Source: Polytrichum commune (taxonomy: Eukaryota; Streptophyta; Polytrichopsida; Polytrichales; Polytrichaceae). Taken from it: DNA of 64,000 nucleotides. The notes below the pieces were generated by a model. It searched no databases. It was given only the letters and a program-made list of their open reading frames with translations, and was not told where the DNA came from. Position numbers and translations under genes: made by a program. The DNA lies in contig OX485806.1 of NCBI GenBank assembly GCA_950295325.1, forward strand, positions 55,671,169 through 55,735,168, written 5' to 3'. This document shows, piece after piece, positions 4,561 to 57,859 of this stretch (position 1 is its first letter; every line of letters starts with the position of its first letter).

Positions 4561-4574
4561 CGAACCGAAAGATT

Positions 4575-5912: not shown

Positions 5913-5918
5913 GATATG

Positions 5919-7867: not shown

Positions 7868-8530
7868 GATTTCAGATAGATCATAGGAAAACAACTCCTT
7901 ATCATCCGCATACCAATGGTCAAATGGAGCGTGTTAACGAGCCTTTGGTGAGCATCCTTCGCAAGATAATTCACGATTCGAAGAAGGATTGGGACGTCAA
8001 GTTAACAACAACATTGTGGGCTTATCGGACAACCTTCAAGGTGACAACACAAGCCACTCCATTTTCATTGGTGTATGGGTTAGAGGCTACACAACCTATT
8101 GAATTCGAGGTGGAGTCACTACGAGTTGCAGTCGACTTGCGTCTTATACATAGTCAATCATTGAGGAATAGGCTGACAACATTGGAGGAACTTGATGAGA
8201 GGAGAAAAATGGGAGCACAACACATTGAAGCCATCCAAAAACGAAGGAAGATCATATTTGAAAAATGACACAAGAAGATGGCACTAAGGCCAAATATGAT
8301 GATGATGATTCAAGATGCTAGAAAGCTTGAATTTCCGGGTAAGTTTGATGCAGTTTGGTTGGGGCTGTACCTCATTCGTGAGGCATTCACAAATAATTCC
8401 TTGCAATTGGATGGGGAGAGCTTCCCAACTCGAACATCAGGCAGTCGGTGCAAGGAGTACAGGGCCTAAAATGACAACTTGCCTACGAAGCAAGAGATTC
8501 TGTGATCCATCCCCTGATGGTCGCCAGTTA
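7868..8530 (+). pseudogene. 3' part of a gypsy integrase (first copy)
   Basis: The plus strand encodes the end of an integrase core and its C-terminal region: LTTTLWAYRTTFKVTTQATPF, SLVYGLEATQPIEFEVESL, NRLTTLEELDERR and the end KFDAVWLGLYLIRE. This family differs from the methyltransferase-type element. It begins inside the core, has a stop at about 8266 and a change of frame before 8278, and ends with a stop near 8469. The short stretch to 8530 matches the one between integrase stop and LTR in the second copy. It is about 80% like 8745-9464 by eye. Confidence 0.75.
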
Positions 8531-28400: not shown

Positions 28401-29429
28401 TTGCTTTCACTGCGAGCATATTTGCACACATTGCCAAGTGTGCTTGCTTACACTACATAGCCATCCAACTAATTCCAAGGCAATATTTTCATGATGCCTC
28501 TACCATGAAAACTGGAATACAAGCACATGGCATTTGGACTTAGTTGAATAAAATTACAAAAGGGAAGAGAGAGGACCATTTGGATTGAGTGGACATACAT
28601 ATGGGGTTTGCTGTTGTGGATTACAATTATTTCCAGAAATTTGAACATGTATAAGACATGTAAAAACAATAATTTTCTATTTGTCATAAATAAGTTTTTG
28701 ACCTTTCAAAAAAAACTATGCTTATACATATTAGATTTTAGGTTTTTTATATTTCTTATAATCCACCATGTTTAAATGTATTGGTGGCCTCGACTTTTAA
28801 GGCTTGCCGAAGGACATTCATTCCTATGTAACCTTTTGATTGGAGAATACAAACTTTGCGTGCACAAACTTGGGTGATTTTTGTTATGTCTTGATTTAGG
28901 TGGGAATGATTTTGCACATTACCGTTGTAATTGAATTACAATTGTTCTCATATCTAAAACAGATCGCGTAATACTATATTTTTTCTTTTTCTTTTGTATG
29001 TCATGTATATATGACACATGTAAACATATGAGTTTGTATCACATTTTTGTCTAAAGACAATATATTGTCATCATTCGAAGGTGACCTAGAAGAATTATGG
29101 AAGGTTCAATAATTCAATTCAATTATATGCAGTTCAATTACTAAATATATCAAAATATATTATATGAAAAATATATTAGAATACATTATATGAAGAATAC
29201 ATTAGATTATTATATATATATATATTGAATTTTTTAAATGCACAACCATCCCCAAACCCTAGTATTACTCTAATAAAACTCCAACTCTTCAATTCGCATT
29301 TTATTTTCAGTAGATATCAAGAGGATAGTGCATATAGCGCAATCAATAAAACTTGAAATACATTTTGAGAAATCTGCATTAAGGAAAACTTTGTTTTGAG
29401 AGATGAGTGCTCACCACAAGGTGGCATAG
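25440..29429. other. Intergenic region, no gene recognised
   Basis: Apart from the small inverted-repeat element at 25911-26421, I see only short open frames without motifs on both strands. Composition turns strongly AT-rich after 28.7 kb, with a TA repeat near 29208-29225. The first part must hold the 3' UTR of the b561 gene; I cannot place its polyadenylation site. Confidence 0.5.
25911..26421. mobile_element. Tourist/PIF-Harbinger-like MITE
   Basis: A 25-bp perfect terminal inverted repeat begins TGCCCCCTCCCCACTTGACA at 25911 and returns inverted at 26397-26421. The 3-bp sequence TTA flanks both ends (25908-25910 and 26422-26424), as PIF/Harbinger elements make. The element is 511 bp and has no coding capacity. 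The termini differ from those of the G-run elements further right, so its driver is not the one identified in this window. Confidence 0.75.
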
Positions 29430-29433
29430 TTAA

Positions 29434-29799
29434 TACCTTCTACTATCACAAAGTTTTCATATGCATTAAACTAGTTAAGTAAGATTGAATGCAACTAAGT
29501 CTAATATATTCTGATTAATCCCAATTAAGCCTAATTAAATCAGAAAATATGCTTACCAAATTAATTAAGCCTAATTAATCATAAATCATATTTACTGGAG
29601 TTAATTCCATTTAAATCATGATTAATTCCAGTAAGTACATTTTATAATTAATTAGGGTTAATTAATTTGGTACGCATATTTTCTGATTTAATTGGGCTTA
29701 ATTAGGATTAAGTAGTATTAATAAAAATTTATTAGACTTAGTTACATTCAATCTTAACTAGTTTAAATGCATATGAAAACTTTGTGATAGTAGAAGGTA
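29434..29799. mobile_element. Fold-back MITE with long arms and TTAA duplication
   Basis: The left arm (29434 to about 29597) and right arm (about 29630-29799) are near-perfect reverse complements, so the 366-bp element can fold into one long hairpin. The ends are TACCTTCTAC and GTAGAAGGTA. TTAA stands on both sides (29430-29433 and 29800-29803). TTAA duplications are typical of piggyBac, but a class assignment from this alone is weak. It is AT-rich and has no open frame. Confidence 0.75.
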
Positions 29800-29803
29800 T
29801 TAA

Positions 29804-29895
29804 ATATATATTAGATATTAGATAGTATAGTATAGTATAGTATATTAAAATATTTATTAATATTAAATTTAATAAATAAATAAATAAATTTTAGT
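29804..29895. repeat. AT-rich simple repeats
   Basis: Short runs of TAGTA units (29823-29845) and AAAT/TAAA units (29870-29888) lie next to the fold-back element. They look like microsatellite growth and carry no gene. Confidence 0.6.
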
Positions 29896-31250: not shown

Positions 31251-33171
31251 ATATGAAGAGTTGGACTTACATCACACTCTCACATGTTCTCAATTTCCGA
31301 ACCCACGATGCCACATATCTCACAGACCAGTTGAACTTCTGGACTGAACTCAAAGACAAGATCCTCCTCACTTGTGCTTCCATCTTGATTCAAAAAGATG
31401 ATGTAGGACGAGAGTATGTTATCGCATATGCTTCATGCAACAATAACAAACTTGAGTCCAACTATTCATCCTATGAGGGAGAGGCATTGGCCACTGTTTG
31501 GGCCATCTCTCATTTTAGACCATATTTATATGGTCAAAGATTTACTTTGGTGACTAATCATCAACCATTTAAATGGCATATGGAGTCGGATAAGCTCATT
31601 GGCAAGCTTGCTAGATGGGCATTGCTACTCCAAAATATGATTTTGGGGTTGTTCATAGAGCAACAACCTCCAACTTGGATGCTAGATAAACTCTCCCGCA
31701 ATCCAAGTCCATCGGAAGAGGATTTAACCGGGGCTAGAAGGCACGGAGATTGTGATTGAGAGGCGTTTCTAGGTTGGCATGCTTCGGCATATATGGCCCT
31801 AATGGGTTAATTCAAGTTTTGAGAAACCAAATCAAGGTGCAAATGAAGAATTTGACAAGTCCCAAGTAATTGGTGATGTCTGGGAAGACTTTCCAATCTT
31901 GCACAAATTAGCATGGGGCATTTCCTACAACCGTCTCGGCTATAGAGCGGGATAGGAGTTCTCACCGAATAACACGATTCCATCGGGAGAATGGATTGTT
32001 ATTTTGTTTGTGGCAAGATGGAGCTAGGCGTATAGTTCCAAGGCCTGATCAGCGTGCTCTCTTAGTACGACAAGTACATGAGGAGTTGGGTCACTTTGGG
32101 GTGCGTAGAACACATTCGATGTTACACAACCAATATTGGTGGAATGGCATATACCAGTAGGTTGCTACCTATGCTGGTAAGTGTAAAGTATGTGATTGGG
32201 TTTGGTCAAGCTTCAACACCTTGTCACCCCAATTACGTCCTTTATGTATTATGAGTTTGGGATATCGATGGAGTTTGGATTTTGCGGGACCACGCATCCC
32301 TAAACCACGTGGGGCAGAATATGTTTTGGTGATGTTAGAACATTTCAACGAGTGGATTGAACTTGTTCTTTTATCCCAAAACTTATCTGAGTTGGTAGCC
32401 GCTGCATTTTTTGATCGTGTTTTAGCATGTTTTGGTGCACTTGCTGAGGTGTTAATTGATCAAGGAAAGGAGTTTCTTGGTTCTTTTGAGGAATTGTGTA
32501 CCCAAACCCTTATTGATCATCATACCACATCACGAGATCATCCAAAAGTAGATGGTTTGGCCGAACGTGTTGTTCAAACGGTCAAACGAGGTTTGCGCAA
32601 GTATGGCGTACTTCGTGGGAACCATCATGATTGGGACCTTATGTTTCCATGGATAGCCATGGGTTACCGGTTCAATAGACAAACATCTTTGGCTTCGTAT
32701 AATCCTTACCAATCTCTATATGGAAGGAAACCTATATTGCCAAATTTTATTCGAAAAAAATTGAATCTAGTTGTAAACTTGAATGACCCAAAAACTTGGG
32801 TTGAATGTCTACATGAGCGGGTTGAGTTCTCCAAATTAGCCATGCCTATGGCCATGGAAATTTGTCTATCGCCCAACATCCTGATACGTTGCAATATGCT
32901 TGTATTTGTAGCGGTATTTATCGACCTCAGTTGCAAAGATTCTCCAAGGGAGATTATGTCTACCTGCAATGTGAGGCACCCACGATTTTAGACGTCAAAG
33001 CATGACGTACAATCCTTCGTGTGAATGATCTCCTCGATGTGGCATTTTGCTACTTGAGTAGTAGGATGAAGAAGAATATCGAGAGCATTCTAAGAGTTGC
33101 GCTCCATGTCACCTTTCCATTGAGGGGACCTTGCATTCCGAATTGGTGGTGGTGCTTGAAGGTCTTTCATG
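31250..33171 (+). pseudogene. Second methyltransferase-type gypsy pol fragment: RNase H and integrase
   Basis: From about 31370 the plus strand encodes RNase H (REYVIAYASCNNN, YSSYEGEALATVWAI, RFTLVTNHQPF, LARWALLLQ, LDKLSRNPSPSEEDL). After a stop at 31757 comes the integrase: HEELGHFGVRRTHSML and KCKVCD for the zinc domain, SLDFAG, LIDQGKEF and DGLAERVVQ for the catalytic acids. It is closely related to the copy at 1-3250. Stops occur near 31757 and 32158 and frames shift near 32860. The 5' part, with any RT and methyltransferase, is missing. The reading continues in frame to about 33171, where the Mutator-like element cuts it; the rest is at 47059 onward. Confidence 0.85.
33161..33171. repeat. 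Left target site duplication of the Mutator-like element
   Basis: GGTCTTTCATG here and GGTCTTCCATG at 47059-47069 differ at one of 11 bases. Both lie at the same point of the gypsy coding frame, so they are the duplicated target. A duplication of 9-11 bp is characteristic of Mutator-like elements. Confidence 0.8.
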
Positions 33172-33252
33172 AGGGAAACTATCTTATGAGTGGTGAGCGG
33201 TGAGCGGTGAGCAGTAACACATGAGCAATGAGCAGTAACATATGAGCAATGA
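33172..33252 (+). repeat. Left terminal inverted repeat and subterminal GTGAGC repeats of the MULE
   Basis: The end reads AGGGAAACTATCTTATGAG followed by GTGAGC-type heptamers (three GGTGAGC-like, then AATGAGC twice). The right end at 47008-47058 holds the inverse with a slightly different order. Repeated heptamers at the ends may be transposase binding sites; that is inference. Confidence 0.75.
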
Positions 33253-33379
33253 ATCCAAATTTAGTAAAGACACACGGGTTTAGGGTACACAACCAAATTT
33301 TTGACAAATTAATTGCATATTTTCAATTGTAAATTGTCAATATTTTAAATGAAGCACAAGTGAAAGGGCCCTATTTCCA

Positions 33380-34145
33380 TGGATCATTTAAAACACTTTC
33401 AATCCATTGCTGATTTTTAATATAATAATCCAAACCAATTTATGTCATTTATTAACATCCTTATACATGTTAGTTACAACCAATATTTGTACAATTACTT
33501 ACATTCCACAACACCAGCAAGTTTAAGTAGGTGCATAACATCATTATACGTATATGTAGGTGCCATAATTGTGAGCCACTTAAACCGCTCACGGGTTGAG
33601 TTAAGGCCCAGAATCTACAAAAGAAAGGAAATTAGATATTAGAAATAATCAATATGTAGGTAATTACTAGGTTTTGAGACATCCGCATGTGGATGCGAGT
33701 TGTGTAAGAGACTGGTATTAGGTCTGGATCAACCCGGGTTCAAATCCGGTTGGTTACATTGATTGGTGCTATCCCAAATTGAGCTAGTAATAAAGCAAGG
33801 ATAATCTATAGGCGGATACCAAGAAGACGTTACTACGCGGATGCGCGTAGAATCTTCTCAATTATTTTTAATTTTTAGAAACTTGTTATTATTTATCTGT
33901 GTGAATCAATCAAACCGCCCACGATTGGGTCGTAGTCTAAATAGAAATGAAGTTACTGAATCATTTGAAATACTTTCAGTCCATTGCTAATTTTTATTAT
34001 AATAATCCAAACCAAAACATGTCATTTATTGACATTCAAATATATGTTGCTTAATAGAATACTTGCAATATTACTTACATTCTACAATACCAACAAGTTC
34101 AAGTAGTCGCATGACCTCATTATAGGTATATGTAGGTGCATGAAT
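33380..34145. repeat. Partial direct duplication of the transposase 3' end
   Basis: About 200 bases at 33380-33590 and at 33952-34145 are alike: both hold TCATTTRAAAYACTTTCARTC-type sequence, a stretch with ATAATAATCCAAACCAA, and the end with GTATATGTAGGTGC. The second copy includes the last codons of the transposase and the donor-like site behind it. The spacer (about 33600-33950) has a B-box-like GGTTCAAATCC at 33740-33750 but no complete tRNA. Confidence 0.55.
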
Positions 34146-37100
34146 GAACTTGTCACTCTCGTAATCCACCTTGCACAAAAATCTAAACACATAATAAAGA
34201 TGTTTATAATACACCCATTTTCCTTTCTTTCCCAATGCATGAGAGGACATTTTTGTGAAATCCGGGCATGTGCAATACGGGATGTTGCCAATTGTGATAT
34301 GGTAGGTCATATCCTGCTTGGAGACAATGTTGATTATCACTCCAAAGCCCGGATATGGAATGCTAGTGACCCCAACCACATAGTAACCTTCCATGAGTCT
34401 GGCGCTCTCCCATTTGTTTTTGTGATCCGCCAGCGGTGCTGTTGGATTACGACGCACTGTCTTCCCAAACCTGAATGTAGGGTGGGCGTCCGGGTTTGGT
34501 GGCATACAAAAATGCAAGCGAGGGATGAGGAAAGTTGCGATTGTTGAAAGCCTACGACGAGGAGACAATGCCTCCCTCTGCTGTAGTTGAAATCCAACAT
34601 TTTCAAGTGCCAAAACCTCCTCTCTCGATAGATTGGTACCTATCTTCACCGGCCACGTGTTGGGTACTATAGGCCAATCCAACACATATTTATTCTTACT
34701 GCCACTCACACAACGCTTGATATCGTCAGTGCAAAACCAAAATTCATACTCCACATTGTTGGGAGAGCGAAATTCATTCCTGAGCCCTTTGTATGTTGGA
34801 GCAGGTGTGCCATGTTTCCCAGTCCCGACTTTGACATTGCACATAGTCCCTGTGATGGCCTGTAGTGCCCAACATCGTTTGGCTGAGTTGGGTGGCAATC
34901 TTGCAATGTGCTACTTACAAGAAAGACAATTAGTCTCTAACACGGATGTAGTATGAGCCACACCATGAATTGCAGAACTCAACGATTCCTCTATGCGTTG
35001 ACGAGTTGCTCGGGTGTTGGGACAATGAATGAAATAGTTCACTTTGTCGGATCGATGAAAGTCACAATCAGCACCCGGTGGTAGGTTGAGTTTGCGTTTG
35101 GTGGAACCAAAAAGCTTTGATCCTTCCAATGCACAATCTCTAGTGTTGACGTATTTTGCCCCTGGATAAGACTTCATAGCATCAGCCAACATTTTTAGAT
35201 CTCCACACCTGGCAGCCGCTTTGAGTTTCAAGGATGCCGAATCAGGACCTTTACCATCAGACCCCCCTTTCAACCATGTCCGGTAATTTGTAATTTGCAT
35301 GAAGGCACGGATCATGTTGTCCACTGTAGCTTCATATAAACAAGTCATCTTGTTGCCGGACTGTTGGAGCCATTTGTTGTGTACAGTCTCTGCAAGGTTG
35401 CATGTTGGCATTTACGCACGTTCTTCTATTGTCATATCCTATGAACAACACACAAATATGAGGATAAGAAAAATATAAGATATATATAACAATGGAAGAA
35501 AAATGAATGACATTGAATAATGAATTTTGATTTTGATATGTACTTACAAGTAACATGTGACCACCCCATTGTCTGTAACAAAAGTGCCAAAAACCCAACC
35601 ACTCTGAAAGGCCAAGGATGTTTTATTCCGAGGCAGCTCCGGATGACAACCACCAAGAACAAATCACATGATACTTAGTCTCGGCGTCGTCCATCATTTT
35701 CACGTCATTGTAATCCTTGCATATTTGCTTGTGTTGAAACTGCAATGATGGTTTGTGTAAGCCGCAATCACCCCCACCCTTCAATTGCGTCCTAGTCCGA
35801 GTGAGGGATCATGAGCTACATTCAAGTATGCAAGTCACAAGTGCAAGCAAGAAAAAGATTGGGAGAAATGGTGTGTATAACACCCTTTTTCATTAATTCA
35901 AACAAGCATTCACAAATGCTTGATTGTCTTACAATGTCAAAGCAACAACTAACCCATTAAATCCCCTTTGTATCCAAAGCTAATGGTTACAACCTCCTCC
36001 TACTAGCCAATGAATCTAACCTTCTCCTACTCATTTAACCCCAAGGCCTTTGGCTCACCGCCTTAACCTAACAACATCTCAGGCCAAACATCCCCTGTTG
36101 CACCACAACACGGATTGGTTCCGGCTCAGAAGCTCACAACGCTCCGTGTGATAACATTTGTTCTTCCTTCAACCATCCCACCCTATCCTGCCACTAATCC
36201 TTGTAGCAACTACACCTACTAGTATGAGTGGAACCTTAATCACTGCACAGATGCCAAACTATCCCATCCTTCCCGGCAGTTCCCGGTAGTTTGTCCTCGG
36301 TGCTCCAGTTGCGCCAGTAAGAGCTCCAGCGACCATCCCCTTTTTCCTTCCTCCACCTGGGTCATGCACACATGCACGTTGCCCGGTGTCCTGTTGCCGT
36401 GCTCGCCCCCCACAGTTTCTCGTGAACAAGTCCTCTCATTGCGACCCCCCAGGGTGCACCATCAAATTCTTGCCACTCAGCTCTCGCATGCTTCCGCGCA
36501 ACTGCTCTGCTCTACTATCTGTCGGTCCGTCCGAGACGCCGCTGCCCGGATCGCCCCTTCGGTCAATCCCCGCAGCGGATGAATGATGCTGCCACCGCGC
36601 CCGATCACGAATCCGCATGCCAGTCGACTCCGATGATCTTCACAGCGCGTCACGGGGACCAGCACCAGGAGCCGTGGAAAGGGAGGTACACCCGAGGTGT
36701 GAGGATAGGAGGCAGACTCATGAAGACGGACCGTCGGCGAGAGGAATCTAGTGGTATAATTTTGTTATGAAAACAGAGCTTCCAACAATTGCCACTAGTG
36801 GCGGTGGCAGCAGGATGGGTTGGTTGTAAATTTCGTAGTCACTCACGAGGGCGTGCAAGAACAAGACACAAGAAGTGGCCTAACATTCATGAATCAGAAA
36901 AAAAGGAATGAAAAATTCAATTGAAAGAAAGCTAAAGAACTCGACAGTAAATTGGTGCAAGGAGATAGCAAGGATGCCGACAGCCCAAAGAAAAATGCTC
37001 AGTTTCGAGTCTAACCACCGCCGTTTCATTACCACTCCTAATTCCACCTTTGATCAAGCATCTGACTAGTTCGGATCATCTCACTCCAATAATCTACCTC

Positions 37101-40100
37101 CTGAATAATAAACCAGCTTGGACTTTAGGTGCAGTGCCACGGCCTCGCAGCTGATGCTGAAATGTGGTGGGTTTCTCTTCTCTTCTCACTATAGGTTCGT
37201 GCTACAAACTTGTGGTACCCACAGATGCCTAACCCTCCCGTACGTTATTCAACTCCAAAATTGACATTTCTTGCAAGGGCAAACTTGAATGGTTGTGGAT
37301 GTCTCAACCATGCAGTGCATTGCGTACCTCCGATGTCCCACCGCTCCTCACACCCTCTTCTCCACCGTTGTGATCATACGAATACTGGTGTCCAATCTTA
37401 CTCGCAATACCAAATCAGTTCGAGGATCCCGTCACTTCTCCCTGCTGAGGTTGCGATTTTTGTTGCCTCTCTCTACATCCCACTTCCCTTTGCACCTACA
37501 GGTTGCTGATCGCGGAGACGGATCTAGGGGCTTAACGCCCGGAGGTTCTTCTTCTCAACCTTAGTCGCCCTCCTCTTTTCCGAATCCCCGATGTCACCGA
37601 TCGGAGAGCAACACTGTTGCCGTCCTTAGCAGAGCTGCCAAAAAAAAACCACGCCTCGTTACTCGACTTTATGTAGACCCCTCCCTCACCGAGGATCTTC
37701 GCTACGCCACCATCTCCACTGCTTCCTGCAAAACGGAGCTTCCACATGAACCGTGTGTTCCCCTCCTCCGCCTTTCCTGCCTGGCCTCATTCCCCTGCAA
37801 AGCAGGGGCTCACCTCCTCTTCCTTCTCTCCTCTACTACATGCATTCATTTCCCAACGAAGTTGGGCTTCGTTTTTTTTTTTTTTTTTTTTTTTTTTCTC
37901 TCTCTACCCTTCTTCTTGCCTAATGAGCTCTCCACCTCCTACCTCCCGAGACCCCTCCAACCTTTTTTTTTTTCCCCGGGTTGCCCGGCATCTTTCGGGC
38001 CGCCCGAGAGAAAAAACGGGTTGAGACCTTTTCCCTTGGCCTCTCCCCTTTTAGGCTCCACTTTCCCACTCCTTCACTTGACTTCTTCTCCCCCTAGACT
38101 CACACTTAACCACTTATATTTTACTCCCCTTTAATCCTCTAAGGTTTATTGCCCTTCCTAACTCTTATTCATCCTCTAACTTAATCCAATCAAGATTTTT
38201 GCCCCTTCGCGTTTCTTATCTTTTTTACTACTTCCGAAAATACAATATTAAGGTTTTAACAGAGTTTTACGGTTAAGTCTTAATGTGGGCACAATCTTGG
38301 GCTCACAGTTTGATATATTTTTGGGTCACATTATCCAAGCTCGCAGACCAATGGAAAAGACATGTACGCTCACGTGCAACCATGGGTAGACTTGGGTCAT
38401 CATCTCCGTAAATCGTCCTCACTGCATTCCAATTAGCTTGAGTACTATCAGCCATAAACCCTTTGAAATTTACGTTTGGTATACCATTTTCTGCCATGAC
38501 AGAATTCAAATTCTTCCAAAAGAGAATTTATACTGCACCATCTTCAGATTGCATGTCACAACACGCAATGGTTAACACTTTATAGTATCGACTGTCGTAC
38601 ACATGGCAAGCCATTATCGTCCAGTCTTTCAAACGTTTGACATGGTCAAATATAATCCATGAATTCTCCATATCCCCCCGACTTGCATCTTTTTCACAAG
38701 TTCCACACCACTACCTGGAAGGTCTACAGACATTTTAAAAACAAACATTTTATCTTTTGATTGTCATGGGAACCGACTACCATGGACGAACTTAAAAGCA
38801 GAGTGGTCTTTAAGTGCCATAATACTATCCATAGTTTCCATTCCACTACGCAAAAAATGCTTTGATCCAGATACAAAGTTACGACAATTTGGGGACGCAA
38901 GAGTTCTGAATTTGTCCATGACCACCTTTAAAGATGAACCGACCAAATGATGGTTATCGCCACTAGCGGGAGATTTGAGAAGGTAATCAACCAGAAATTG
39001 TTTGTTCGTTACCATAACTATGGCTGAATTTTTTGTTGTGGGTGTTTTCAATACTTCATTTGCAACGCATTGGTATGTCATGTCCAATGATTTACGACAT
39101 GTGTCATTAGCCACAGATTGATCATGTACACCAAGATGAATACAAGCCCTGGACATTCCAACAGATGTGGAGTGGATGTATATTATTCGAGCATGACACA
39201 AAGCAATGCACACAGGTGTGGAACGACATACCTTACACTCAATAGTGGACCTAGTAGGGGGAACATTACCCACAATAAATGAGAGAGGAGTTGAACTAGC
39301 CCATTCAGTGTTGTTCCGGAGACCCCATTGCGATGCATGTAATCACAATAGTCATTAGGACATTGGAGATGACCTGCACAAGTAGACCGCTGGAAGGATA
39401 ATCCAAAATCATTTTGGATATTTGTGGTTTTGGTGGTACACCAAGGGTGCCCGTCGTACATCTTGTCCATACCGTCCATTGAGCGGCCATACGTACTTGG
39501 AACTTTAAGTGTCACAGGGGGCAAGAGAAACAAAATGTCGCCATTAAAAAAAGATGGTAAGTACTTGACATCTCGAACATTTATATTATCAAAATCAATG
39601 GATGCGAAATCTGACTCTGATCTTTTTCTTGACTTTGTAAGCTTCAAGGCATCAACAATAGTCAACCCTATAGATGAAGGTGAAGGGTGTAGTGGAGGAT
39701 GTTGAGAAGGTGAGATCTGGGGAACCAACCTATTGTACATAGGACCGCATGGAGATTTGGCTACATGTATAGGAAGTTGTGAAGGAGTGGAATGAAGACT
39801 CTTAAATGGAAATGGCAATGTGTTTGAAAGATCAACAGATGCATAAATGTCATCTTCTGAATCTGATAGTACAAACACACTGTCGTCAATGGATTCAAAT
39901 TTAACAGGTGCGACAGAGGGAATTTGAACTGTGAATGTACCGGATTCGTTTGTTAATATGACAATTGAAGCTTACATCTGAGAGTCAGAAAGACCTATCA
40001 CCCTAAATGAACCAGGTCCTAAGATCCACATAAAACCAACCTCGGTTTTATTTTTTTGAACCAAAACCGTTTCATACACCTTTCCATCTGCAGAGTACAT

Positions 40101-40220
40101 GGTTCCTATCTGGAGGTTGAATCTCAAACTAAGCAAATCCCCCGAGACATCCACATGACCATCATCTTGAAGTGGCAAAATGAAGGGAACAACAGATCCG
40201 TGAGCTCTAATGGTAGCCAT
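34071..40220 (-). pseudogene. MULE transposase with SWIM zinc finger (broken)
   Basis: The transposase cuts and inserts the element through its end repeats. The minus frame starts at ATG 40220 (MATIRAHGSVVPF). A Cys/His-rich part (HLQCPNDYCDYMHRN, then CKVCRS) lies at about 39390-39200. The DDE core follows (HVYDSRYYKVLTI near 38600 and FKGFMADSTQANW near 38450, each with an acidic residue). After the solo LTR comes DYNDVKMMDDAE, an intron at 35439-35547, then TVHNKWLQQSG. The SWIM finger (YCTCPDF...WVYYKHLYY, about 34277-34160) has Tyr where the third Cys of CxC...CxH is expected. Lesions are a TAA at about 39972 (or a splice donor there), a frameshift near 39250, a stop near 38545, the LTR at 35756-38307 and a stop at 34911. 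The frame rejoins across the LTR once one target copy is removed. The active ancestor would be about 1100 residues. Confidence 0.8.
35756..38307 (-). mobile_element. Solo LTR, family A, inside the MULE transposase
   Basis: On the plus strand it runs from TGTAAGCC to GGGCTCACA and is flanked by GTTTG on both sides (35751-35755 and 38308-38312). At 2552 bp it is about 1 kb longer than the other family A LTRs, so it may hold extra repeats or an insertion. It contains poly-T runs at 37870-37897 and 37963-37972. No retroviral domain is seen. Confidence 0.8.
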
Positions 40221-41284
40221 GGAGAAGAAGAAATAGATGAACAACACATGACAATAATCTTGGATCAATGTCGCTTTTATATTGAATGATGAAGAATATA
40301 ATAATAGATGTAAATGAAAATAGGTGATACCATAGCATCTAATAATATAAAAAGAGACAGATCATAATAGTAGTTAGAGAATATTTGCAACCAAGGCATA
40401 GAATCCTAAACCAGATCTTAAAAAATATCTCCTTTAGAAACTAAGTCATAGGAAACTTGAATCCACAAACGAATTGTGTAATATAAGATTACCACATGGG
40501 ACAAATGCAGGTACAGATATCATGGAGAAAATGACGTTAAATAATAAACATGTTGGCAGAGTTTTAAAATGCGACTGGGCAGGCTGGATATAGATGTAGG
40601 AACAATTAAAATTGGCCGAGAAAGTAAATAAATGGCCATTATAAATAGAACAAAATGGATGTAGAAGGTTGGGATATCAGAAAAATTTGGCGGATATAAT
40701 CAAAATAGAAGCATAATGAAAGACACGTTGAAACAACTCGGTCATTGGACGCCAATTGCAACACGGATGATCGTAATATGCGCCAAGTTTATGTGAGCTA
40801 TAAACACCAGAAGAATGTATGAAAGTGGAGTGGTAGAAGACATATCATAGATACCAATGATGGTGGAAGATGTGGAGAGAAAACCAGTGAGGCGGAAGAA
40901 AAGGCGTAGGAAAGCTTTGTGTTTTACTTCTAAGAAAAAGAGGTTAAGAATGAATGTAGGAAAGAAGAATGCAAGTAGGGAAGGGAAAAATATCCTTTTG
41001 ACTATGATAGAAGAAACTGTGAAGAAAGTGGATTTTGATACCATATCGACAATGGCGATGGAGGACGATCAAGGTGCAAAGAGAAAAGAGCATGCACAGA
41101 TTGTATTTCGGAGTCGGAAATGAAGACGAGTTCAAAAAACAAAACAAACAAAAAAATAATTTAGCTTCACTTTCATATAATTTAATAGTGTATTGAATGA
41201 AAATGAGGTAGAATATGACATTTACATGTAAATAGAAATTATTGAACGATTTAAAATGATAGAAATCTTATTGAAGTGAACCTT

Positions 41285-42012
41285 GTGCATTAATGCACAT
41301 GGTATATGGGATGAATAAGAGAGCTAGAAAATTAGGAGGGGAAACCATGTGCGTCAACGCACATGGTTCTTCATTCTAATTGATAACCTCTTTAAGTCGC
41401 TACGACATGCCCTGTGCATTGACGCACAGGGTTCTTCATTCTAATTTATAATCTCGCTAAGTTGCTACCACATGGCCCGTGCGTTAACGCACAGGGCATG
41501 TGATAGCGACTTAGAGATGTTATATATTAGACTGAAGAATCCTATGCGTTGACGCACAATGTATATGACAACGACTTAGGAAGGTTATAAGTTTGGAGGG
41601 GAAACCCTGTACATTGATGTATAATGTATGTGGTGGCGAGTAACAGAGATTGAAAGTTAGTTATGAAAACCTTGTGCGTTAACGCACAGGGTTTGTGGTG
41701 GCGAGTAAAGGAACTTGAAAATTAGTAGTCAAAACCCTGTGCATTAATGCACAGGATATGTGGTGGCGAAAAAGGGAGCTTGAAAGTTAGTAGTGAAAAC
41801 CTTGTGCGTTAACTCAAAGGGTATGTGGTGGCAAATAAGGGAGCTTAAAAGTTAGTAGAAAAAACCTTGTGCGTTAACGCACAGGGTATCTGGTGGCGAA
41901 TAAGGGAGCTTGAAAGTTAGTAGTGAAAACCATGTGCGTTAACGCACAGGGTATATGGTGGCAAATAAAGGAGCTTGAAAGTTAGTAGGAAAAACCCTTT
42001 GCGTTAATGCAT
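41285..42012. repeat. Array of twelve 65-bp units with a palindromic core
   Basis: Each unit holds a version of GTGCGTTAACGCAC, a perfect 14-bp palindrome, usually inside a wider ACCCTGTGC...GCACAGGGT inverted repeat. Core starts are 41285, 41349, 41414, 41479, 41544, 41609, 41674, 41739, 41804, 41869, 41934 and 41999, so the spacing is 65 bp throughout except one step of 64. Cores at 41479, 41674, 41869 and 41934 are perfect; 41285 and 41739 have the variant GTGCATTAATGCAC, also a perfect palindrome, as expected from C-to-T decay of both CpG sites. 41609 and 41999 are most degraded. A further perfect copy lies at 42337-42350. The array lies between the divergent transposase (start 40220) and ParB-methyltransferase (start 43062) genes. 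Confidence 0.9.
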
Positions 42013-42336
42013 AGGATATGTGCCAACGACTTGGAAAGCCAAAATGTAAAAAGAGAAGCCTATTGTATGAATTTGAAACGACGTATAGAGGGTAGGAGCA
42101 AGGAATTTGTCAAAAATGGGGTAAGAATGCAGAAAATGAGGTATGTGTTTGCTCAAATATTGATGCAATATATGACAGGGGTTTAAAAATCATAAAAAGT
42201 AGTAGGAAATTTTTTGTGCCCGTAAGCACAAAATCTATGAGGTGGCCGAAAACAATGAAATACATAGACGAATGAGTAAGAGAAATTATTTCAAACAAGA
42301 AACCTTTCTAGACCCCCAGCTAGGCACATAGACCCC

Positions 42337-42350
42337 GTGCGTTAACGCAC
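42337..42350. promoter_or_regulatory. Isolated perfect copy of the array palindrome
   Basis: GTGCGTTAACGCAC stands here within CCCCGTGC...GCACAGGGT, 325 bases beyond the array and about 700 bases before the methyltransferase start. Its wider match shows it is related to the array and is not chance. A binding or modification site role is inference. Confidence 0.6.
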
Positions 42351-42439
42351 AGGGTCCGCCCTAGTTGTTTAGGGTGAGCCGCCACCCTAATCAACCAATA
42401 CTAAAGCTATCTAGGTCGCCCCTTATGATTTTTTTTGCC

Positions 42440-42920
42440 TTTCTTCCTGTTGTTGGTGGTTGTGTTTAGTTGTTGTTACTGCTGCTACTATTGTTGTTCT
42501 TGTTCTTGCTCATGTGTTGCTGATGGTGTTGCTACTACTTCTAGTGATGTTGGTGTTGGTGTTGGTGGTACTAGGTCTAGTTACTAGTATTTTGTTGTAC
42601 TTGCTAGTGGTGTTACTGGGTTAAGTTGCTTATCTATTGTTGTTATTGGTGTTGTTCTTCTCTTGGTGTTACTTCTGCTGGTGTTGTTATTTTACTGTTG
42701 GTGTTGGTGTTGATGCTACTGTTACTACTGCTGCTATTGTTGGTCTTGTTGATGTTGCTGGTGGTACTAGTGCTGTTACTAGTGCTGGTGCTGGTGCTGT
42801 TACTACAACTGGTGCTGTTATTTTGTTGCTGGTATTGTTGGTGTTGCTGGTGCTGGTGTTCCGACTGTTGGTGTTATTCTTCCACTGGTTTAGAGTTTGA
42901 AGTTGTTGTTGTTACATGTA
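42440..42920 (+). repeat. GTT/GCT/GGT-rich low-complexity tract
   Basis: About 480 bases of imperfect TTG, CTG, GTG and ACT triplets lie just upstream of the methyltransferase gene. Open frames across it give only Leu/Val or Gly/Ala strings and are not real genes. It may be transcribed as leader sequence. Confidence 0.7.
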
Positions 42921-43061
42921 TTCTTCTTTCTCTAAATCATTTTTTTTAAACATGTCGTCGTTTGCAACCTTTACTTTCAAATATTTATTGATATTTCTAG
43001 AACTTAGTTCATCAAAATGATTTCAAAAACTTACTTCATTGTTTGCATTTAGGACCACACA

Positions 43062-46000
43062 ATGGATGTGGAGAAAACAATTCCTAATTCCACTAATGAA
43101 GATTCAATAAAAAATTCAACTCAAGATCGTCCATATGTACAAATTTATCATGATCAGGACATCTGTTCAAATCTTCATAATAAGAAGAAAAAAAAATTAC
43201 CTGAACCCCTCAATAATTTTGACTCCGATGAAGACAATGATGGTGATAATAAAACCTATCCAGAGAAAGTGTGGGAGCTTACTGACAAACAAAAGGTCAA
43301 TTCTACAGCAACAATTTCTTCAATTCGTGCTAGATCCAATTCTCGTTTGTTTGTACCTTTATGTCGCATGGTTCCTATGCCTATTGTGCGTCCTGCTTTA
43401 AAGGGAGATATTACTAAATTGGAGGTTGATTTCTTCAACGGTTATCGTGATGGTGACCATGCATTTTACATATCGGCCACTAATTCTAAGGGGGACTTTC
43501 AATTTGTGGATGATGAGGTTCGTATAACTTGGAGCCCAAATTGGACTCAAGCCAATGCAGTGTTTGATTCTCATTTGAAATCAAACCCTTCATTTACTTC
43601 ATACAAGAATAAAATGCTCTTCATATGGGATGGTAATCACAGATTTTTCACTTGGAAAAATTACATTGACCGCGTACATACCGAAAATTATGAGTATCAT
43701 GTTTTTGTGAATTCTATCATTTTGGCGCTCCAACCTGACGACATTCCAAGTTTGTTTACTGCTATGCACGACATCAACAAGTAATGCTCTTACCTATTAG
43801 TTTTCTTTCAATTATTTCTCATTTATTTTTTATTTTTTAAATTATGTCATCCTAAAACTAATCAATTTAATGTTTTTTCAGGTCGACTGAGAACTCTCAC
43901 GTTTCCACCAATTTGGTGTACACTTTGTATCGGATGCAAAGCATTAGTACGATGCCTTTGACTTCCTTAAAAAAAATTGGATTCCAAAAGTTATAAGCGA
44001 TGTGAGGAGAAGTCCGTCGAAACTTGGTATTCTTTGACGCGACGAATATTTTTGGATTACATGTACAGTGTAAGTTCATCTAAACTTTCTTATTGTGTTA
44101 TTTATGTTTATTCATCTTCATTCACATTTTATCTATATGTACTCATAAATTTTCATTTTTTTTAAATTTTTCAGCAAGAACTTGCTGAGGCTAGCAATAT
44201 TGCTCTCAACCATTACAATGAGACTCATCCCCTTGAAAGAACATCAAAAGGAGTTTCAAAAGCAATATCCATAGCTGTCAACAAAAAACGTGTAATGTTG
44301 TCTTCGATTTTTACAAAACAACTGGCGATTGCCGATATCAACCTCACACATGCTTTCCTTGAAGAAATTAAGCACCATTGGGGTTTATTTTCGGTGCCTG
44401 AAATATTACAAGAGAAACTTCATCGTGTGGTTGTCAGTAATGTTGATGCAGAAGTCAAAGTCGGATGGCTCAAACTTTGGAATGACAATAAGTTTGACAA
44501 AGATGCATTGCATTTCCCGAAGTCGTCCCTCTCTGATTCTGCACTTGATGATTGGTTATCGAAATCCACATATTGGGCACAGCTGGAAAAAAAATCTATT
44601 GAGGAGCTTCATAGTATTCTTTCATCTCCTCTTTAATTGCCAGCACATGTGCCTACTCTCTCCGAGTATATCCAAACCAGGAAGTTTGTGGCTTTCAATT
44701 CAATATTTTATCGTGAATTCAAAAGCGGGAAAGTAAAAAAACACAACGCTTGGGATGAGCAACCTAATATTGATCTTGCTATGAAACATGTTTTATACAG
44801 GTACAACCTCATCTTTACTATTTTTAAAAAAAAATTTACATGTTTTAAATTATCATTCAATATTTGGCTCATAATATTTTTGTGTGTCGATGCTTTCGAT
44901 ATGTTTTGATTCCGCACAAGTGCGTTACAGGGGAACCTCGTTTCTTTCCAAATTGACATGATACTGGTGCAAAAGATTCATGCATGTTCACTACTGAGAT
45001 TTGTTTAGATTGGTCGCTCCCACACTATGAGGATTGTGGTTGGTATTTTGATTGTCCTAAGGATGCATGTCCGCCAAGTGAGAAGGCAATCCGTCAGATA
45101 AATGATACAGAAAAATAAATCCTCATGATACTGCAATCTTGCAAGTACAAATTGTGCAGCTTAAACTTAGAGAGCCAAAACCAAAAGAGACAAAACGTCG
45201 AAAAAGAAAACTTGTTCATGAAAACAAAATAGAAGATCAATCAGAAATTTCACAATATGAAAAATTGCTTGTTCTTTCTAATGATTTGGATAAGAATACA
45301 CTCGGAGGCGAAAGTTCAAAATCTGGGTGCGATGTATTGGAATTTCATTACTCTAGCACCTATGATGCTATTCATCGTGCGTCAATGAATGTTTTGAGAA
45401 AATAGTTATTCATACTGAAGAATTTTCTCACGCTCTCTTTTGCTCAATCTACTGCTATCAAGAACAAGTCTGAAGGGGTGGATGTAGGCCCTCCTGAGTG
45501 GATCCAATGGCGGGCATTTATTGAAAACGTAAGTGATCTTGATTTTGTAATTTCTCTTTTATTCTTACTTTCATTTAGATTTTTTATATTTTATATTTTT
45601 ATATTGTGATGTGTTGTGGTATTTCAGTTCAATGACAATTGGGAATTTTATGTCATGGGAAGTCCGACTCCCTTTGCCGTTGACTTGGTTTTTTTCCAAT
45701 GTCCCGACGGTCTTGATTTCAACCTCTCCAATAGACTTGCTAAAATTCCTCTATGGAATAAATATGATAAGAACTGGATGATTGCAATAATGTCCTTGTG
45801 CAAGTCCATCTTGTCTGACGATGACATCCTCATAGTATTTTCTGCTATCGATATGCAAACCAAGAAGGTTTTGAATTCAACCTTACACAACAGCAACATG
45901 AAAGTTCTTAGGATTTTTATTTGCCTGAATTTGTACATGGTTTTCAAGGATCCAAAGTGTCCAACCTACACCGTAAGTATAACACCTCACAATTGTTTTT

Positions 46001-46875
46001 ATGTAATTATTTTGGTGTTATTTGTATTGTATATAGTTTTAACATTTTTTATATTTTTTTGTAGACTCCGGCATTTATGGCTCATGTCTTGGTAAGGGAT
46101 TTTACTACCACAAAATCCACGAGACAACCAAAATCCACGTTTTTAGGCTCTGGATTGAAAAACAAAAACTTGCTTTTCAATTTTGTGGATGAAAAAAACA
46201 TGCTTATTCAGAAATCGGGAAGACCTTGGAGGGGGCCATATCAAAAATCGCCTTGTTTTTTTCAAGACATTATTGAATTGTTTACACCAACAAATGGACG
46301 CGTTGTTGATTTGACATGTTCCACTGGATCTTTTATCCTAGCAACACGCGCATGTGGCAGACATTTTCTTGCATTTGAAGGTGATAATGACATATTTGAG
46401 CACATATTGAAACCACTTTTGGAAAAGGATTTGAAAGAGGGGTCATCTAAGGAGAATATTCAAGATCTTACAAGAGAAAATAATGACCTCTCGGATGAGG
46501 AGATGCTTGAATTTGAGTGTGAGTGAGTTTTGATACAATAATTGTTCTTTCATTTCATTAAATTCATTAGTTCATTTTGATTTCTTCAATTTTATTTACA
46601 TATTTGATCGATTTTATTTCAGGAATACGACTACAAAGAGGACATGTCTCCCGTTTTGGGCACATAGACAATTCCTACGAAGTCCAAGCCGTAGCCCGCG
46701 TCTCCCATCATATGTCGAGAATGTTGCAATTGCAATGTTAAATATCGAAGATTCGGATCCAAATGAAGAATCTTGCTATAGTTCCAAAATCAATTCGCAA
46801 TGCATAGGTGTTCACATATATATAGATGACGAGGCAAAAGATAGTTTCATGTCCAATGCTACTAGCAATGAATAA
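43062..46875 (+). pseudogene. ParB-like domain joined to a beta-class DNA methyltransferase-like domain (MULE cargo)
   Basis: A multi-exon gene: 43062-43780, 43882-44069, 44175-44800, a fourth exon from about 44890-44935 to 45528, then 45628-45972, 46065-46522 and 46623-46875; the listed introns are GT-AG. The first exon has ParB-like features: a GYRDGDHAF segment and MLFIWDGNHRFFTWKNYID (DGNHR matches the ParB/nuclease-type D-G-x-H-R box). The last exons resemble beta-class amino-methyltransferases, which modify adenine N6 or cytosine N4: KSGRPWRGPYQKSPCFFQDI, then VVDLTCSTGSFILATRACGR and HFLAFEGDND, matching the C-terminal SAM-binding motif (DxFxGSGT, then an acidic GiE-like strand). An N-terminal position where DPPY would stand reads VDLVFFQCPDG, so catalysis is doubtful. 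Lesions: A-run frameshifts near 43968 and 45112, stops at 44634, about 44957 and 45403. The ancestor would be about 1070 residues. ParB and methyltransferase partners are common in bacteria and phages, which may hint at its origin. Confidence 0.7.
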
Positions 46876-46999
46876 ATATTTGCATTTCATGTTGTTTATC
46901 CTTTCCACCCCTCTTATTATTAAACCTTAAAATCATCATTTTTTAGACCAAAATTCCACGGTTATAGGATATTGGTGGCCCTATTACCAAATATTTCAC

Positions 47000-47058
47000 C
47001 TTCATCACCGCTCACAAGTTACCGCTCATTGCTCACCGCTCATAAGATAGCACTCCCC
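47000..47058 (-). repeat. Right terminal inverted repeat of the MULE
   Basis: Read on the minus strand it gives GGGGAGTGCTATCTTATGAG and then GGTGAGC, AATGAGC and related heptamers. It is followed on the plus strand by the second target copy GGTCTTCCATG (47059-47069). Confidence 0.8.
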
Positions 47059-47487
47059 GGTCTTCCATGTTTTATTTATGGTGAAAATAAAGGTGCGACA
47101 AACATGTTGTTGTGTGACACATGCCAACGAGGTTGGCATATGGTATATTTAATTTCATCATTGACTTCACTGCCTTCAGGTGATTGGATTTTCCCTCAAT
47201 GTTGGAGATCATCAAGTCATGCTACGTCTTTGGACAAGCTTTGATTGTTTCTAGGAAGGTTATTTATTATTGTCATGACGACAACATTGACATTTTTGGT
47301 GACAATGCGCCAGATACGAGGTAAGGCGTAACTTGATGGGTAGATTGCGAGAAGATTCGACAACAAAAATCATCGAAGGCAACTTAAGATGGGGCACATA
47401 GCCTACAAGTTTTGTTGTGATGTTATTATCTAGTTATTCTTATAGTCGTCGGACGGATCCTTAACGTCAACAAAAAAAATGGAGAAA
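47059..47487 (+). pseudogene. PHD-finger end of the gypsy pol, right of the MULE
   Basis: The frame continuing from 33171 gives GLPCFIYGENKGATNM, LLCDTCQRGWHM and LTSLPSGDWIFPQC, the pattern of a PHD zinc finger (Cys4-His-Cys3), a domain that reads histone H3 tails. Several ligands are lost (Tyr or Phe at three expected Cys positions). A stop comes at about 47242. The following 240 bases are non-coding and end in an A/G-rich stretch (47472-47487, AAAAAAAATGGAGAAA) that looks like a polypurine tract. Confidence 0.75.
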
Positions 47488-54735: not shown

Positions 54736-55935
54736 GTGCCCATTTACGCGGATTGCGAATTTGGTTCGGACTGTGCGGATGGCCAGGCCCCTGCTTCGGT
54801 TGCACCGACGTCCACCACATCAGGTCTCAATGCTCCAGGCACATCACAAAGCGCACGGTCGTCGTCGGGTCCATCTCAATCACAAGCTGCGGCACCTCCC
54901 AAGGTTCGTGGGCCCAACTGGACCGAGGCTGAGATGCTTGTCCTCATTGCCCAGAAACGTATTGAGTGGGACGGGAAGCATAATTGCAATCAACCTTCTC
55001 TTGCAAAGTTTGTGTATGGAACCACAGCCTGGAAATTGGTATTGGTTGGATGCATGGGTGTAGTGGGATTCCGGGTGAGGGATACCGACCAAATTACCAA
55101 TAAATGGGATGGATTGATTAAGGATTATAAGAAACTCAAGGAGTACATAGATGGCACAGGTTCCGCCAATTGGTGGGGATTGAGTAGGGATGAGAACAAA
55201 CAATTGTCGAAGACTAGGAAGATGTCGTTGGAGTTTAGTGAGTCCATGTACATGGAAATGGAGGCGTTTGTTGGAAAGAGACAAATATTTGGCCGTGCCA
55301 CGGATGTGGTGGATTCCGACCGGGTGGCGCCACCGACTAGAAGGCATTTTGGTCGCTCCACTCCCACCCCACGCGCTCAATGTTTTGGTGGGGTGGGGAG
55401 CCCCATACCTGGTGCCACGACTTCCTCAGACTATCCTATTGGGGGAACTCCCGGAGACGATACGCCGGGATCGACGGGCCGGAAGAGGAAGGCCGTGGGC
55501 ACTGACAATTTGGTTGACTTTGTGAAGGACTTTAATTTTGAATACCTAGCACGTGTTGAGGCCCAAGACAAAGATAGACAAGCATGGAGGACTGACACGT
55601 TGGCATTTGACAAGGCGAGGGAGGTGAGAATTGCACAAAAAGATACAGAAGTTATTAACATGGATCAAAAACTTTATGAATTGGAGGTCGAGAGGACCCA
55701 GAATCTAGGCAACATGACTGGCATGCTACTCATGTTGGCGTCGTCTATGGACACTCTCACAAGGTCTTCTACTCAACCTGCCTTTCCTTCATTGTGGGTT
55801 TCCTTCACAATCCTCCCCTCCTCGGTTGTCTACCTATGTGATTGGCATTTTAAACTCGAACTAGGTAGTCCAAGAGGTCCTCCCTCGCCATTTGGCCTTC
55901 CAGTAATGCTCTTTCCTCACTCTCGAGACCCATAG
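54736..55935 (+). CDS. Myb/SANT (trihelix-like) protein of a PIF/Harbinger element
   Basis: PIF/Harbinger elements encode a second protein that binds the element ends and helps the transposase enter the nucleus. The frame is open from at least 54736 to 55935 (about 399 codons). The first possible start is GTG, so the true start may be upstream through an intron or a lost ATG. Order: Ser/Pro-rich leader (1-55), a Myb/SANT-like domain (about 58-165) with GPNWTEAEMLVLIAQKR, GFRVRDTDQITNKWDGLIKD and YKKLKEYIDGTGS, a Pro/Gly-rich linker with a basic GRKRKAV patch (possible nuclear signal), then a charged helical part (about 265-330). The last 28 codons lie antisense to the transposase gene end, so the natural C-terminus may lie earlier. 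No internal stop. It converges with the transposase gene. Confidence 0.75.
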   Translation: MPIYADCEFGSDCADGQAPASVAPTSTTSGLNAPGTSQSARSSSGPSQSQAAAPPKVRGPNWTEAEMLVLIAQKRIEWDGKHNCNQPSLAKFVYGTTAWKLVLVGCMGVVGFRVRDTDQITNKWDGLIKDYKKLKEYIDGTGSANWWGLSRDENKQLSKTRKMSLEFSESMYMEMEAFVGKRQIFGRATDVVDSDRVAPPTRRHFGRSTPTPRAQCFGGVGSPIPGATTSSDYPIGGTPGDDTPGSTGRKRKAVGTDNLVDFVKDFNFEYLARVEAQDKDRQAWRTDTLAFDKAREVRIAQKDTEVINMDQKLYELEVERTQNLGNMTGMLLMLASSMDTLTRSSTQPAFPSLWVSFTILPSSVVYLCDWHFKLELGSPRGPPSPFGLPVMLFPHSRDP

Positions 55936-57475: not shown

Positions 57476-57859
57476 CTCGGAGGCAGATTGAGGAGCTACC
57501 TCTTCTTGTGGTTGTGGGACCTTGAGGCATACAATATTTGATTAAGACTAGGCAACAATGTACATTCGCAAATTTTGGGTAGTGACAGTCTCACTAAACA
57601 AACTACGGCCATGGTATAGGCATGTGTAGGGAAATGGCAGCCAGGAAATGGAGAACGCAATTAATGACAAGCAAAGACAAACGTGAAGATGATAATTATT
57701 TTTGTCTTATGTTGGGAGTTGGCATGTTCACCTCCATTACACTGAAGCTCTTAATTTGAATTTATTGATGAATGAAAAACTGAAGTCGGAATATTGCACA
57801 CACATTGGAGTTTACAACACAAAGTCCTTGACTAAATGGGAAAATCGTGGATGTCGTTT

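What the first reader, a model, noticed from the sequence alone, without database searches (positions are those of the whole stretch)
33172..47058. A Mutator-like transposon carrying a ParB-like plus adenine/cytosine-N4-type DNA methyltransferase gene
Seen: clear MULE ends, an 11-bp target duplication, a SWIM-type transposase, and a divergent spliced gene whose first exon has a ParB-like D-G-N-H-R box and whose last exons have the SAM-binding motif of beta-class amino-methyltransferases. Known: ParB and such methyltransferases are often paired in bacteria and phages; plant MULEs are known to capture other genes. Inference: a phage- or bacterium-like module was taken up by a eukaryotic transposon and may mark or protect transposon DNA. 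I do not recall a description of this combination.
Basis: partly seen in the sequence, partly recalled or inferred. Interest (0 to 1): 0.9.

Follow-up and report, generated by a model that had tools for sequence, protein, structure and literature searches.

The report
Plant transposon with ParB-methyltransferase-like accessory gene
A broken jumping gene from what is probably a plant carries, beside its transposase, a second gene resembling a bacteriophage DNA-binding and DNA-methylating protein, but its methylating centre looks lost and the space between the two genes holds a row of palindromes it might bind.

Summary
The element is real: 33172-47058, matching terminal inverted repeats, an 11-bp target duplication with one mismatch. 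A transposase-like gene (minus strand) and a seven-exon gene (plus strand, about 1,070 residues if read through) diverge; this copy is broken. The plus-strand gene belongs to a family (42 relatives of exon 1, 48 of exons 5/6, all short fragments). Its exon 6 is homologous to the SAM-binding half of permuted (beta-class) amino-methyltransferases (profile-profile E 2.6e-9 against 11 phage enzymes). Exon 1 has a ParB-like D-G-N-H-R box; that assignment is only probable. The catalytic [D/N/S]-P-P-[Y/F/W] motif is absent in the window and in all 20 close relatives covering the site, so a dead methyltransferase fold is likelier than a DNA-marking enzyme; more distant relatives were not sampled there. 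New here: 12 palindromic sites (TGTGCGTTAACGCACA), eleven on a 65-bp period, between the two genes (0.24 expected per window). Prior art: a 1,104-residue ParB-like plus N4C/N6A-methyltransferase protein, opposite the transposase, in a brown-algal Sola1 transposon, with green and red algal cases cited. This is a new variant of a known kind. The host-genome search did not complete, so intact copies could not be sought.

The parts
33161..33171 (.). left target-site duplication ggtctttcatg
   Evidence: read; 10 of 11 identical to 47059-47069
33172..33260 (+). left end / terminal inverted repeat with short GAGCRGT-type direct repeats
34071..35411 (-). C-terminal part of the transposase-like gene, with C-x-C ... 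K-H (SWIM-like) stretch; frames broken
   Evidence: no Pfam MULE/SWIM hit
35750..38300 (.). stretch in which I recognise no transposase reading; poly(T) at 37872-37897; nature unresolved, boundaries approximate
38300..40220 (-). N-terminal and D...D...C-x-x-H part of the transposase-like gene, broken frames; boundaries approximate
   Evidence: motifs recalled
41284..42351 (.). array of 12 palindromic sites (consensus TGTGCGTTAACGCACA), eleven on a 65-bp period, between the two divergent genes
43062..43780 (+). exon 1: acidic N-terminus plus ParB-like domain (D-G-N-H-R, H-D-I-N-K)
43882..44069 (+). exon 2 (frame broken in this copy)
44175..44800 (+). exon 3, function unknown (one stop in this copy)
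44891..45528 (+). exon 4, Cys-containing and basic region (broken in this copy; start approximate)
45628..45972 (+). exon 5: presumed catalytic half of the methyltransferase fold; motif IV position reads QCPDG (QFPDG in 9 of 20 covering relatives)
46065..46513 (+). exon 6: SAM-binding half, motif X-like KSPCFFQDIIELF and motif I VVDLTCSTGS; 3' end approximate
46623..46875 (+). exon 7: C-terminal tail
46990..47058 (-). right terminal inverted repeat
47059..47069 (.). right target-site duplication ggtcttccatg
   Evidence: read

Best explanation
This is an old, inactive copy of a two-gene Mutator-like DNA transposon. SHOWN: a transposase-like gene and a divergent spliced gene lie between inverted repeats flanked by a target duplication; the second gene has, in its last exons, a beta-class amino-methyltransferase-derived SAM-binding half; the catalytic motif is missing in this copy and in all 20 close relatives that cover it; an array of conserved palindromes lies between the genes. 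PROBABLE: its first exon is a ParB-like domain. INFERRED: the second gene is the element's own accessory protein. Its ParB-like domain, perhaps with exons 2-4, binds the palindromic array. From there it acts as a non-catalytic architectural or regulatory protein, controlling the shared promoter region or keeping the element from being silenced, with the methyltransferase fold used as a scaffold or sensor rather than to add methyl groups.
For: Ends and duplication. Conserved family: 42 exon-1 relatives (all E 2e-19 or better) of 157 candidates, including a group of six at 40-45% identity; 29 invariant columns in 13 aligned sequences (window and 12 of the 42, chosen for completeness). 48 relatives of exons 5/6 of 83 candidates. 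SAM half homologous to 11 phage amino-methyltransferases, hhalign E 2.6e-9, 96% probability; a typed exon-6 piece hit 83 phage records at E up to 10 (best 3e-4); of the 20 listed, 19 are annotated as methylase/methyltransferase, one has no annotation. Catalytic tetrad standard in 0 of 20 covering relatives, while A-F-E-G-D downstream is kept in 22 of 24. Palindromes: 12 matches with up to 3 mismatches, all in 41284-42351, against 0.24 expected in the whole window; between the left block plus lone copy and the right block the palindromes are 77.5% alike, the spacers 48.2%.
Against: No direct evidence that the protein binds the array. ParB assignment is weak: DUF1015 E 0.009 for 1 of 13 members (the window), no ParB_N hit; profile against phage YcdA E 0.022 and against F-plasmid SopB E 0.54, neither significant; structure models too poor to decide, pLDDT 48.0 and 52.5. 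Full D-G-N-H-R is kept in only 9 of 24 covering relatives (D-G-N-H in 16). Motif I is eroded too: its glycine is kept in 13 of 24, so many sampled fragments may simply be decayed copies. The 20 sequences that cover motif IV are all close relatives (58-87% identical); the six at 40-45% were not sampled there. The palindrome copies show little arm-to-arm covariation (97 of 2000 shuffles reach the observed pairing), and symmetric changes could be CpG decay. Exon 5 is not recognised on its own (E 0.066), so the motif IV alignment is an inference. That relatives sit in elements with these ends is untested.
Confidence: 0.45

Rival explanations
1. The protein is an active transposon-encoded N6-adenine or N4-cytosine methyltransferase that binds and marks its own element (the first reader's reading, and the suggestion of the Ectocarpus authors for such proteins). 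This copy and the sampled relatives would be decayed.
For: Same domain order as phage ParB-methyltransferase fusions (PMC12704722 passages). Same suggestion made for the brown-algal protein (PMC12477816 passages). Many sampled fragments are visibly decayed, and distant relatives were not sampled at motif IV.
Against: 0 of 20 covering relatives have the catalytic tetrad, and 9 of 20 agree exactly on QFPDG, which points to a shared ancestral state rather than separate decay. In the bdelloid enzyme, SPPY to APPA abolishes activity (PMC8885841 passages).
Confidence: 0.25
2. Passive gene capture: a host or bacterial gene fragment carried along by a MULE (Pack-MULE) with no role for the element.
For: Plant MULEs capture genes (recalled; Pack-MULEs also mentioned in PMC12477816). 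This copy is broken.
Against: Conservation down to 40% identity with 29 invariant columns, many family members, and the same pairing described in another transposon type. No dN/dS could be measured.
Confidence: 0.12
3. The palindromic array is an ordinary minisatellite or hairpin-forming promoter repeat, or a transposase-binding site, unrelated to the ParB-like protein.
For: Units are a clean 65-bp tandem; the three palindromes tested fold as hairpins (z -3.7 to -4.2); repeats bound by transposon-encoded proteins are known in other plant elements (recalled). No arm covariation.
Against: The palindromes, not the spacers, are conserved between blocks, and a lone copy at 42336 keeps the palindrome in a different surrounding. 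Their position next to a ParB-like gene is suggestive, no more.
Confidence: 0.4
4. The exon-1 domain is not a ParB fold; D-G-N-H-R is a chance likeness in an unrelated domain.
For: No ParB_N profile hit; models of low confidence.
Against: Box order I-V-R-P / D-G-N-H-R / H-D-I-N-K parallels ParB (recalled), and DUF1015 aligns over the same box; D-G-N is nearly invariant in the 13 aligned; the published transposon protein pairs ParB with the same methyltransferase type.
Confidence: 0.2

Closest known systems
ParB-like + N4C/N6A methyltransferase protein of transposon Sola1-1_Ec32 (Ectocarpus; PMC12477816, passages read)
   Same: Protein of similar size (1104 aa; here about 1070), same two domains, encoded on the strand opposite the transposase in a large DNA transposon (21.5 kb; here 13.9 kb).
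   Different: Brown alga and Sola1 element against a probable plant and an element with an 11-bp duplication and long inverted repeats. Whether theirs keeps the catalytic motif, or has a palindromic array, was not in the passages I saw.
[quoted passage not shown] Petroll 2025 - cited in PMC12477816; neither held, not read)
   Same: Cited as ParB-methyltransferase transposon proteins.
   Different: Not testable here.
Phage ParB_N-N6_N4_Mtase fusions, e.g. Halobacterium phage phiH YcdA (L016)
   Same: Same domain order.
   Different: Phage protein is 419 residues with D-P-P-Y; the protein here has several hundred extra residues between the domains, introns, and no catalytic tetrad.
DNMT-carrying retrotransposons of dinoflagellates and Klebsormidium (PMC5890265, passages read)
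   Same: Eukaryotic transposable element encoding a DNA methyltransferase-related domain.
   Different: C5 enzymes in retrotransposons; here an amino-methyltransferase fold in a DNA transposon.
Bdelloid N4CMT (PMC8885841, passages read)
   Same: Permuted amino-methyltransferase of bacterial/phage type in a eukaryote.
   Different: Active SPPY enzyme with a chromodomain; no ParB domain mentioned in the passages.

Membership tests
Transposon ParB-methyltransferase accessory proteins (Ectocarpus kind) | encoded inside a DNA transposon, opposite strand to transposase | tested here: met
   (transposase identified by motif only)
Transposon ParB-methyltransferase accessory proteins (Ectocarpus kind) | ParB-like domain followed by N4C/N6A methyltransferase domain, about 1100 aa | tested here: inconclusive
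   methyltransferase half clear; ParB-like half by motif and weak profile
Transposon ParB-methyltransferase accessory proteins (Ectocarpus kind) | sequence homology to the algal proteins | not testable with these tools
   sequences not held
Beta-class amino-methyltransferase (PF01555) | SAM-binding half with motif I, in permuted position | tested here: met
   hhalign E 2.6e-9 over query columns 160-239; PHROG E 1.7e-6
Beta-class amino-methyltransferase (PF01555) | curated Pfam cut-off 26.7 bits | tested here: not met
   22.0 bits, joined exons 5+6
Beta-class amino-methyltransferase (PF01555) | catalytic [D/N/S]-P-P-[Y/F/W] | tested here: not met
   window QCPD; 0 of 20 covering relatives; position set by a non-significant exon-5 alignment
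ParB/sulfiredoxin superfamily | D-G-x-H-R box | tested here: met
   window DGNHR; DGNHR exactly in 9 of 24 covering relatives, DGNH in 16
ParB/sulfiredoxin superfamily | ParB_N profile (PF02195) | tested here: not met
   no hit at E up to 10 or for any of 13 members at E up to 1
ParB/sulfiredoxin superfamily | ParB fold | tested here: inconclusive
   models pLDDT 48.0 and 52.5, too poor to decide
Mutator-like elements (MULE) | terminal inverted repeats with 8-11 bp target duplication (definition recalled) | tested here: met
   11 bp, one mismatch
Mutator-like elements (MULE) | MULE transposase / SWIM profiles (PF10551, PF04434) | tested here: not met
   no hit at E up to 10 in the broken pieces or the joined piece; pattern D...D...C-x-x-H and C-x-C...K-H seen by eye

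The most novel reading that the evidence does not exclude
A eukaryotic transposon has taken over a phage partition-like switch: a ParB-like nucleotide-dependent clamp loads at a parS-like array of palindromes between the element's two genes, and the fused, catalytically dead methyltransferase fold serves as a SAM- or modified-base-sensing arm, so the element carries its own 'centromere' and reader to resist silencing or control its promoters.
Probability: 0.15. Interest if true: 0.85.

Novelty: new variant of a known kind. Interest (0 to 1): 0.55.

Why it matters
If ParB-methyltransferase proteins recur in unrelated transposon types of brown, green and red algae and now in a probable plant, they are a general transposon accessory module whose job is unknown. 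A lineage that keeps the protein but has lost the methyl-transfer motif would separate binding from marking. The palindromic array beside the gene offers a concrete DNA target to test; the passages I saw of the published description do not mention one.
Full report
WHAT IS THERE. Its ends at 33172 and 47058 share an inverted repeat of 30 columns at 90%. The 20-base end motif, with up to 3 mismatches allowed, occurs only at these two places in 64 kb; mean 0.00 in 100 shuffles. The flanks are ggtctttcatg and ggtcttccatg, an 11-bp duplication with one mismatch (by arithmetic, 34 of 4^11 11-mers lie within one mismatch of a given one, about 8 per million per comparison). On the minus strand a transposase-like gene runs from about 40220 to 34071 with broken frames and, between about 35.75 and 38.3 kb, a stretch in which I recognise no transposase reading. 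It shows a D...D...C-x-x-H pattern and a C-x-C...K-H stretch like MULE transposases (recalled), but no MULE or SWIM profile hit at E up to 10, so the MULE name rests on ends, duplication and motifs.

THE SECOND GENE. On the plus strand seven exons between 43062 and 46875 give about 1,070 residues if read through (my splice model). Exons 2, 3 and 4 carry frame changes or stops in this copy. A search with exon 1 found 42 relatives among 157 candidates, all at E 2e-19 or better, at 40-81% identity; they are fragments on short contigs (longest 10,881 bases) without organism names. Six of them (P0032, P0034, P0035, P0036, P0038, P0039) form a distinct group at 40-45%. A piece of exons 5 and 6 found 48 of 83 candidates. 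In 13 aligned exon-1 sequences (window and 12 of the 42, chosen for completeness) 29 columns are invariant, and D-G-N is nearly so. Many relatives are themselves decayed: of 24 covering the box, 9 have DGNHR exactly and 16 DGNH; of 21 covering the second box, 16 have HDINK.

THE METHYLTRANSFERASE HALF. Exon 6 matches PHROG DNA methyltransferase families (E 1.7e-6, 2.5e-5). Joined exons 5+6 match N6_N4_Mtase at E 1.8e-4, 22.0 bits, under the curated 26.7; 2 of 17 members scanned match it. Profile-profile comparison with four phage methylases gave E 1.9e-8 and with eleven E 2.6e-9, 96% probability, over query columns 160-239, which hold the motif X-like, I and II stretches. Exon 6 alone by tblastn found only 4 phage records, best E 0.05; a typed 73-residue majority-like piece hit 83 phage records at E up to 10, best 3e-4, and of the 20 listed 19 are annotated as methylase or methyltransferase and one has no annotation. 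Order is that of the permuted (beta) class. The presumed catalytic half, exon 5, is not recognised alone (E 0.066), but its best alignment puts VDLVFFQCPDG on VDLILTDLPYG of the Cellulophaga phage enzyme. Of 20 relatives covering that site none has [D/N/S]-x-P-[Y/F/W/H]; 9 read QFPDG. These 20 are close relatives (58-87% identical); the distant group was not sampled there. Motif I begins D-L in all 24 relatives covering it, but its glycine is kept in only 13. In the bdelloid N4CMT, changing SPPY to APPA abolished methylation (PMC8885841, passages). I therefore judge the sampled family to be, most likely, a methyltransferase fold without the reaction.

THE PARB-LIKE HALF. The box order in exon 1 resembles ParB (recalled). 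Support is modest: DUF1015 at E 0.009 for one of 13 members, the window itself (PMC12704722 names 'DU1015' among domains fused to the ParB fold, passages); and an in-register but non-significant alignment (E 0.022) to the ParB domain of phage phiH YcdA, itself ParB_N plus N6_N4_Mtase. Against F-plasmid SopB the same profile gave E 0.54. Two AlphaFold models were too poor to decide (pLDDT 48.0 and 52.5). I call this probable, not shown.

THE PALINDROMIC ARRAY. Between the two genes, 41284-42351, lie 12 matches to TGTGCGTTAACGCACA with up to 3 mismatches and none elsewhere in the window; 0.24 are expected in 64 kb. At up to 5 mismatches there are 13 in the 1.5 kb around the array and 13 in the rest of the window, + strand. 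Eleven lie on a 65-bp period (the first step is 64, one step is double), one stands alone at 42336. Between the left block plus lone copy and the right block the spacers are 48.2% identical, the 22-bp palindromes 77.5% (13 units). A control for covariation between palindrome arms was weak (97 of 2000 shuffles reach the observed value), and paired changes may be CpG decay. Single strands fold to hairpins better than all of 200 shuffles for the three tested. The inference that the ParB-like protein binds these sites is mine and untested.

WHAT IS KNOWN. [quoted passage not shown] PMC12704722 (passages) reports ParB-fold fusions to N6_N4 methyltransferase domains as frequent in phages. PMC5890265 (passages) reports C5 methyltransferases in retrotransposons. 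So the kind is known. What I found no description of, in ten searches of the open library judged by title and abstract start, are this element type, a probable plant host, the loss of the catalytic motif in the sampled family, and the palindromic array. The host is probably a plant: a reading frame with the At5g54830-like domain (E 2e-50) lies at 19230-19931.

LIMITS. The host genome could not be searched; relatives are protein fragments without context; the splice model is mine and the exon 4 start and exon 6 end are approximate.

Noticed in passing
133-7933 (minus): A Ty3/gypsy-like retroelement (protease 7933-7292, weak at E 0.001; reverse transcriptase fragments about 4268-3300 seen by eye; integrase 1050-133, E 5.7e-14) carries between protease and reverse transcriptase a C5-cytosine methyltransferase domain (5779-4577; pieces joined with X give PF00145 E 6.5e-11, 42.7 bits against cut-off 22). 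Compare the Klebsormidium DNMT retrotransposons (PMC5890265). Two methyltransferase-bearing mobile elements thus lie in one window.
   Followed up: partly
17459-19931 (plus): Fragments of a plant-type gene: At5g54830-like domain at E 2e-50, with weaker DM13 and DOMON matches below cut-off, pointing to a plant host.
   Followed up: partly
54736-57541: PIF/Harbinger-like pair: Myb/SANT-like ORF (54736-55935, plus; E 2.6e-5, just below cut-off) and DDE_Tnp_4 transposase (55850-57541, minus; E 4.7e-27).
   Followed up: no
31670-33028: Second gypsy-type stretch, 70% like 29-1388 in inverse orientation, close to the left end of the transposon.
   Followed up: no
29426-29807: A 382-bp stretch that matches its own reverse complement at 83%: a long imperfect palindrome.
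   Followed up: no
33380-33563 and 33957-34139: A 184-bp direct repeat (82%) near the end of the transposase; the stretch between contains GGTTCAAATCC, like a tRNA-type B box, perhaps a SINE (motif recalled; ARAGORN found no tRNA).
   Followed up: no
47101-47244: Just outside the right end a frame reads CDTCQRGWHMVYL, resembling a PHD finger seen in some retroelements (recalled).
   Followed up: no
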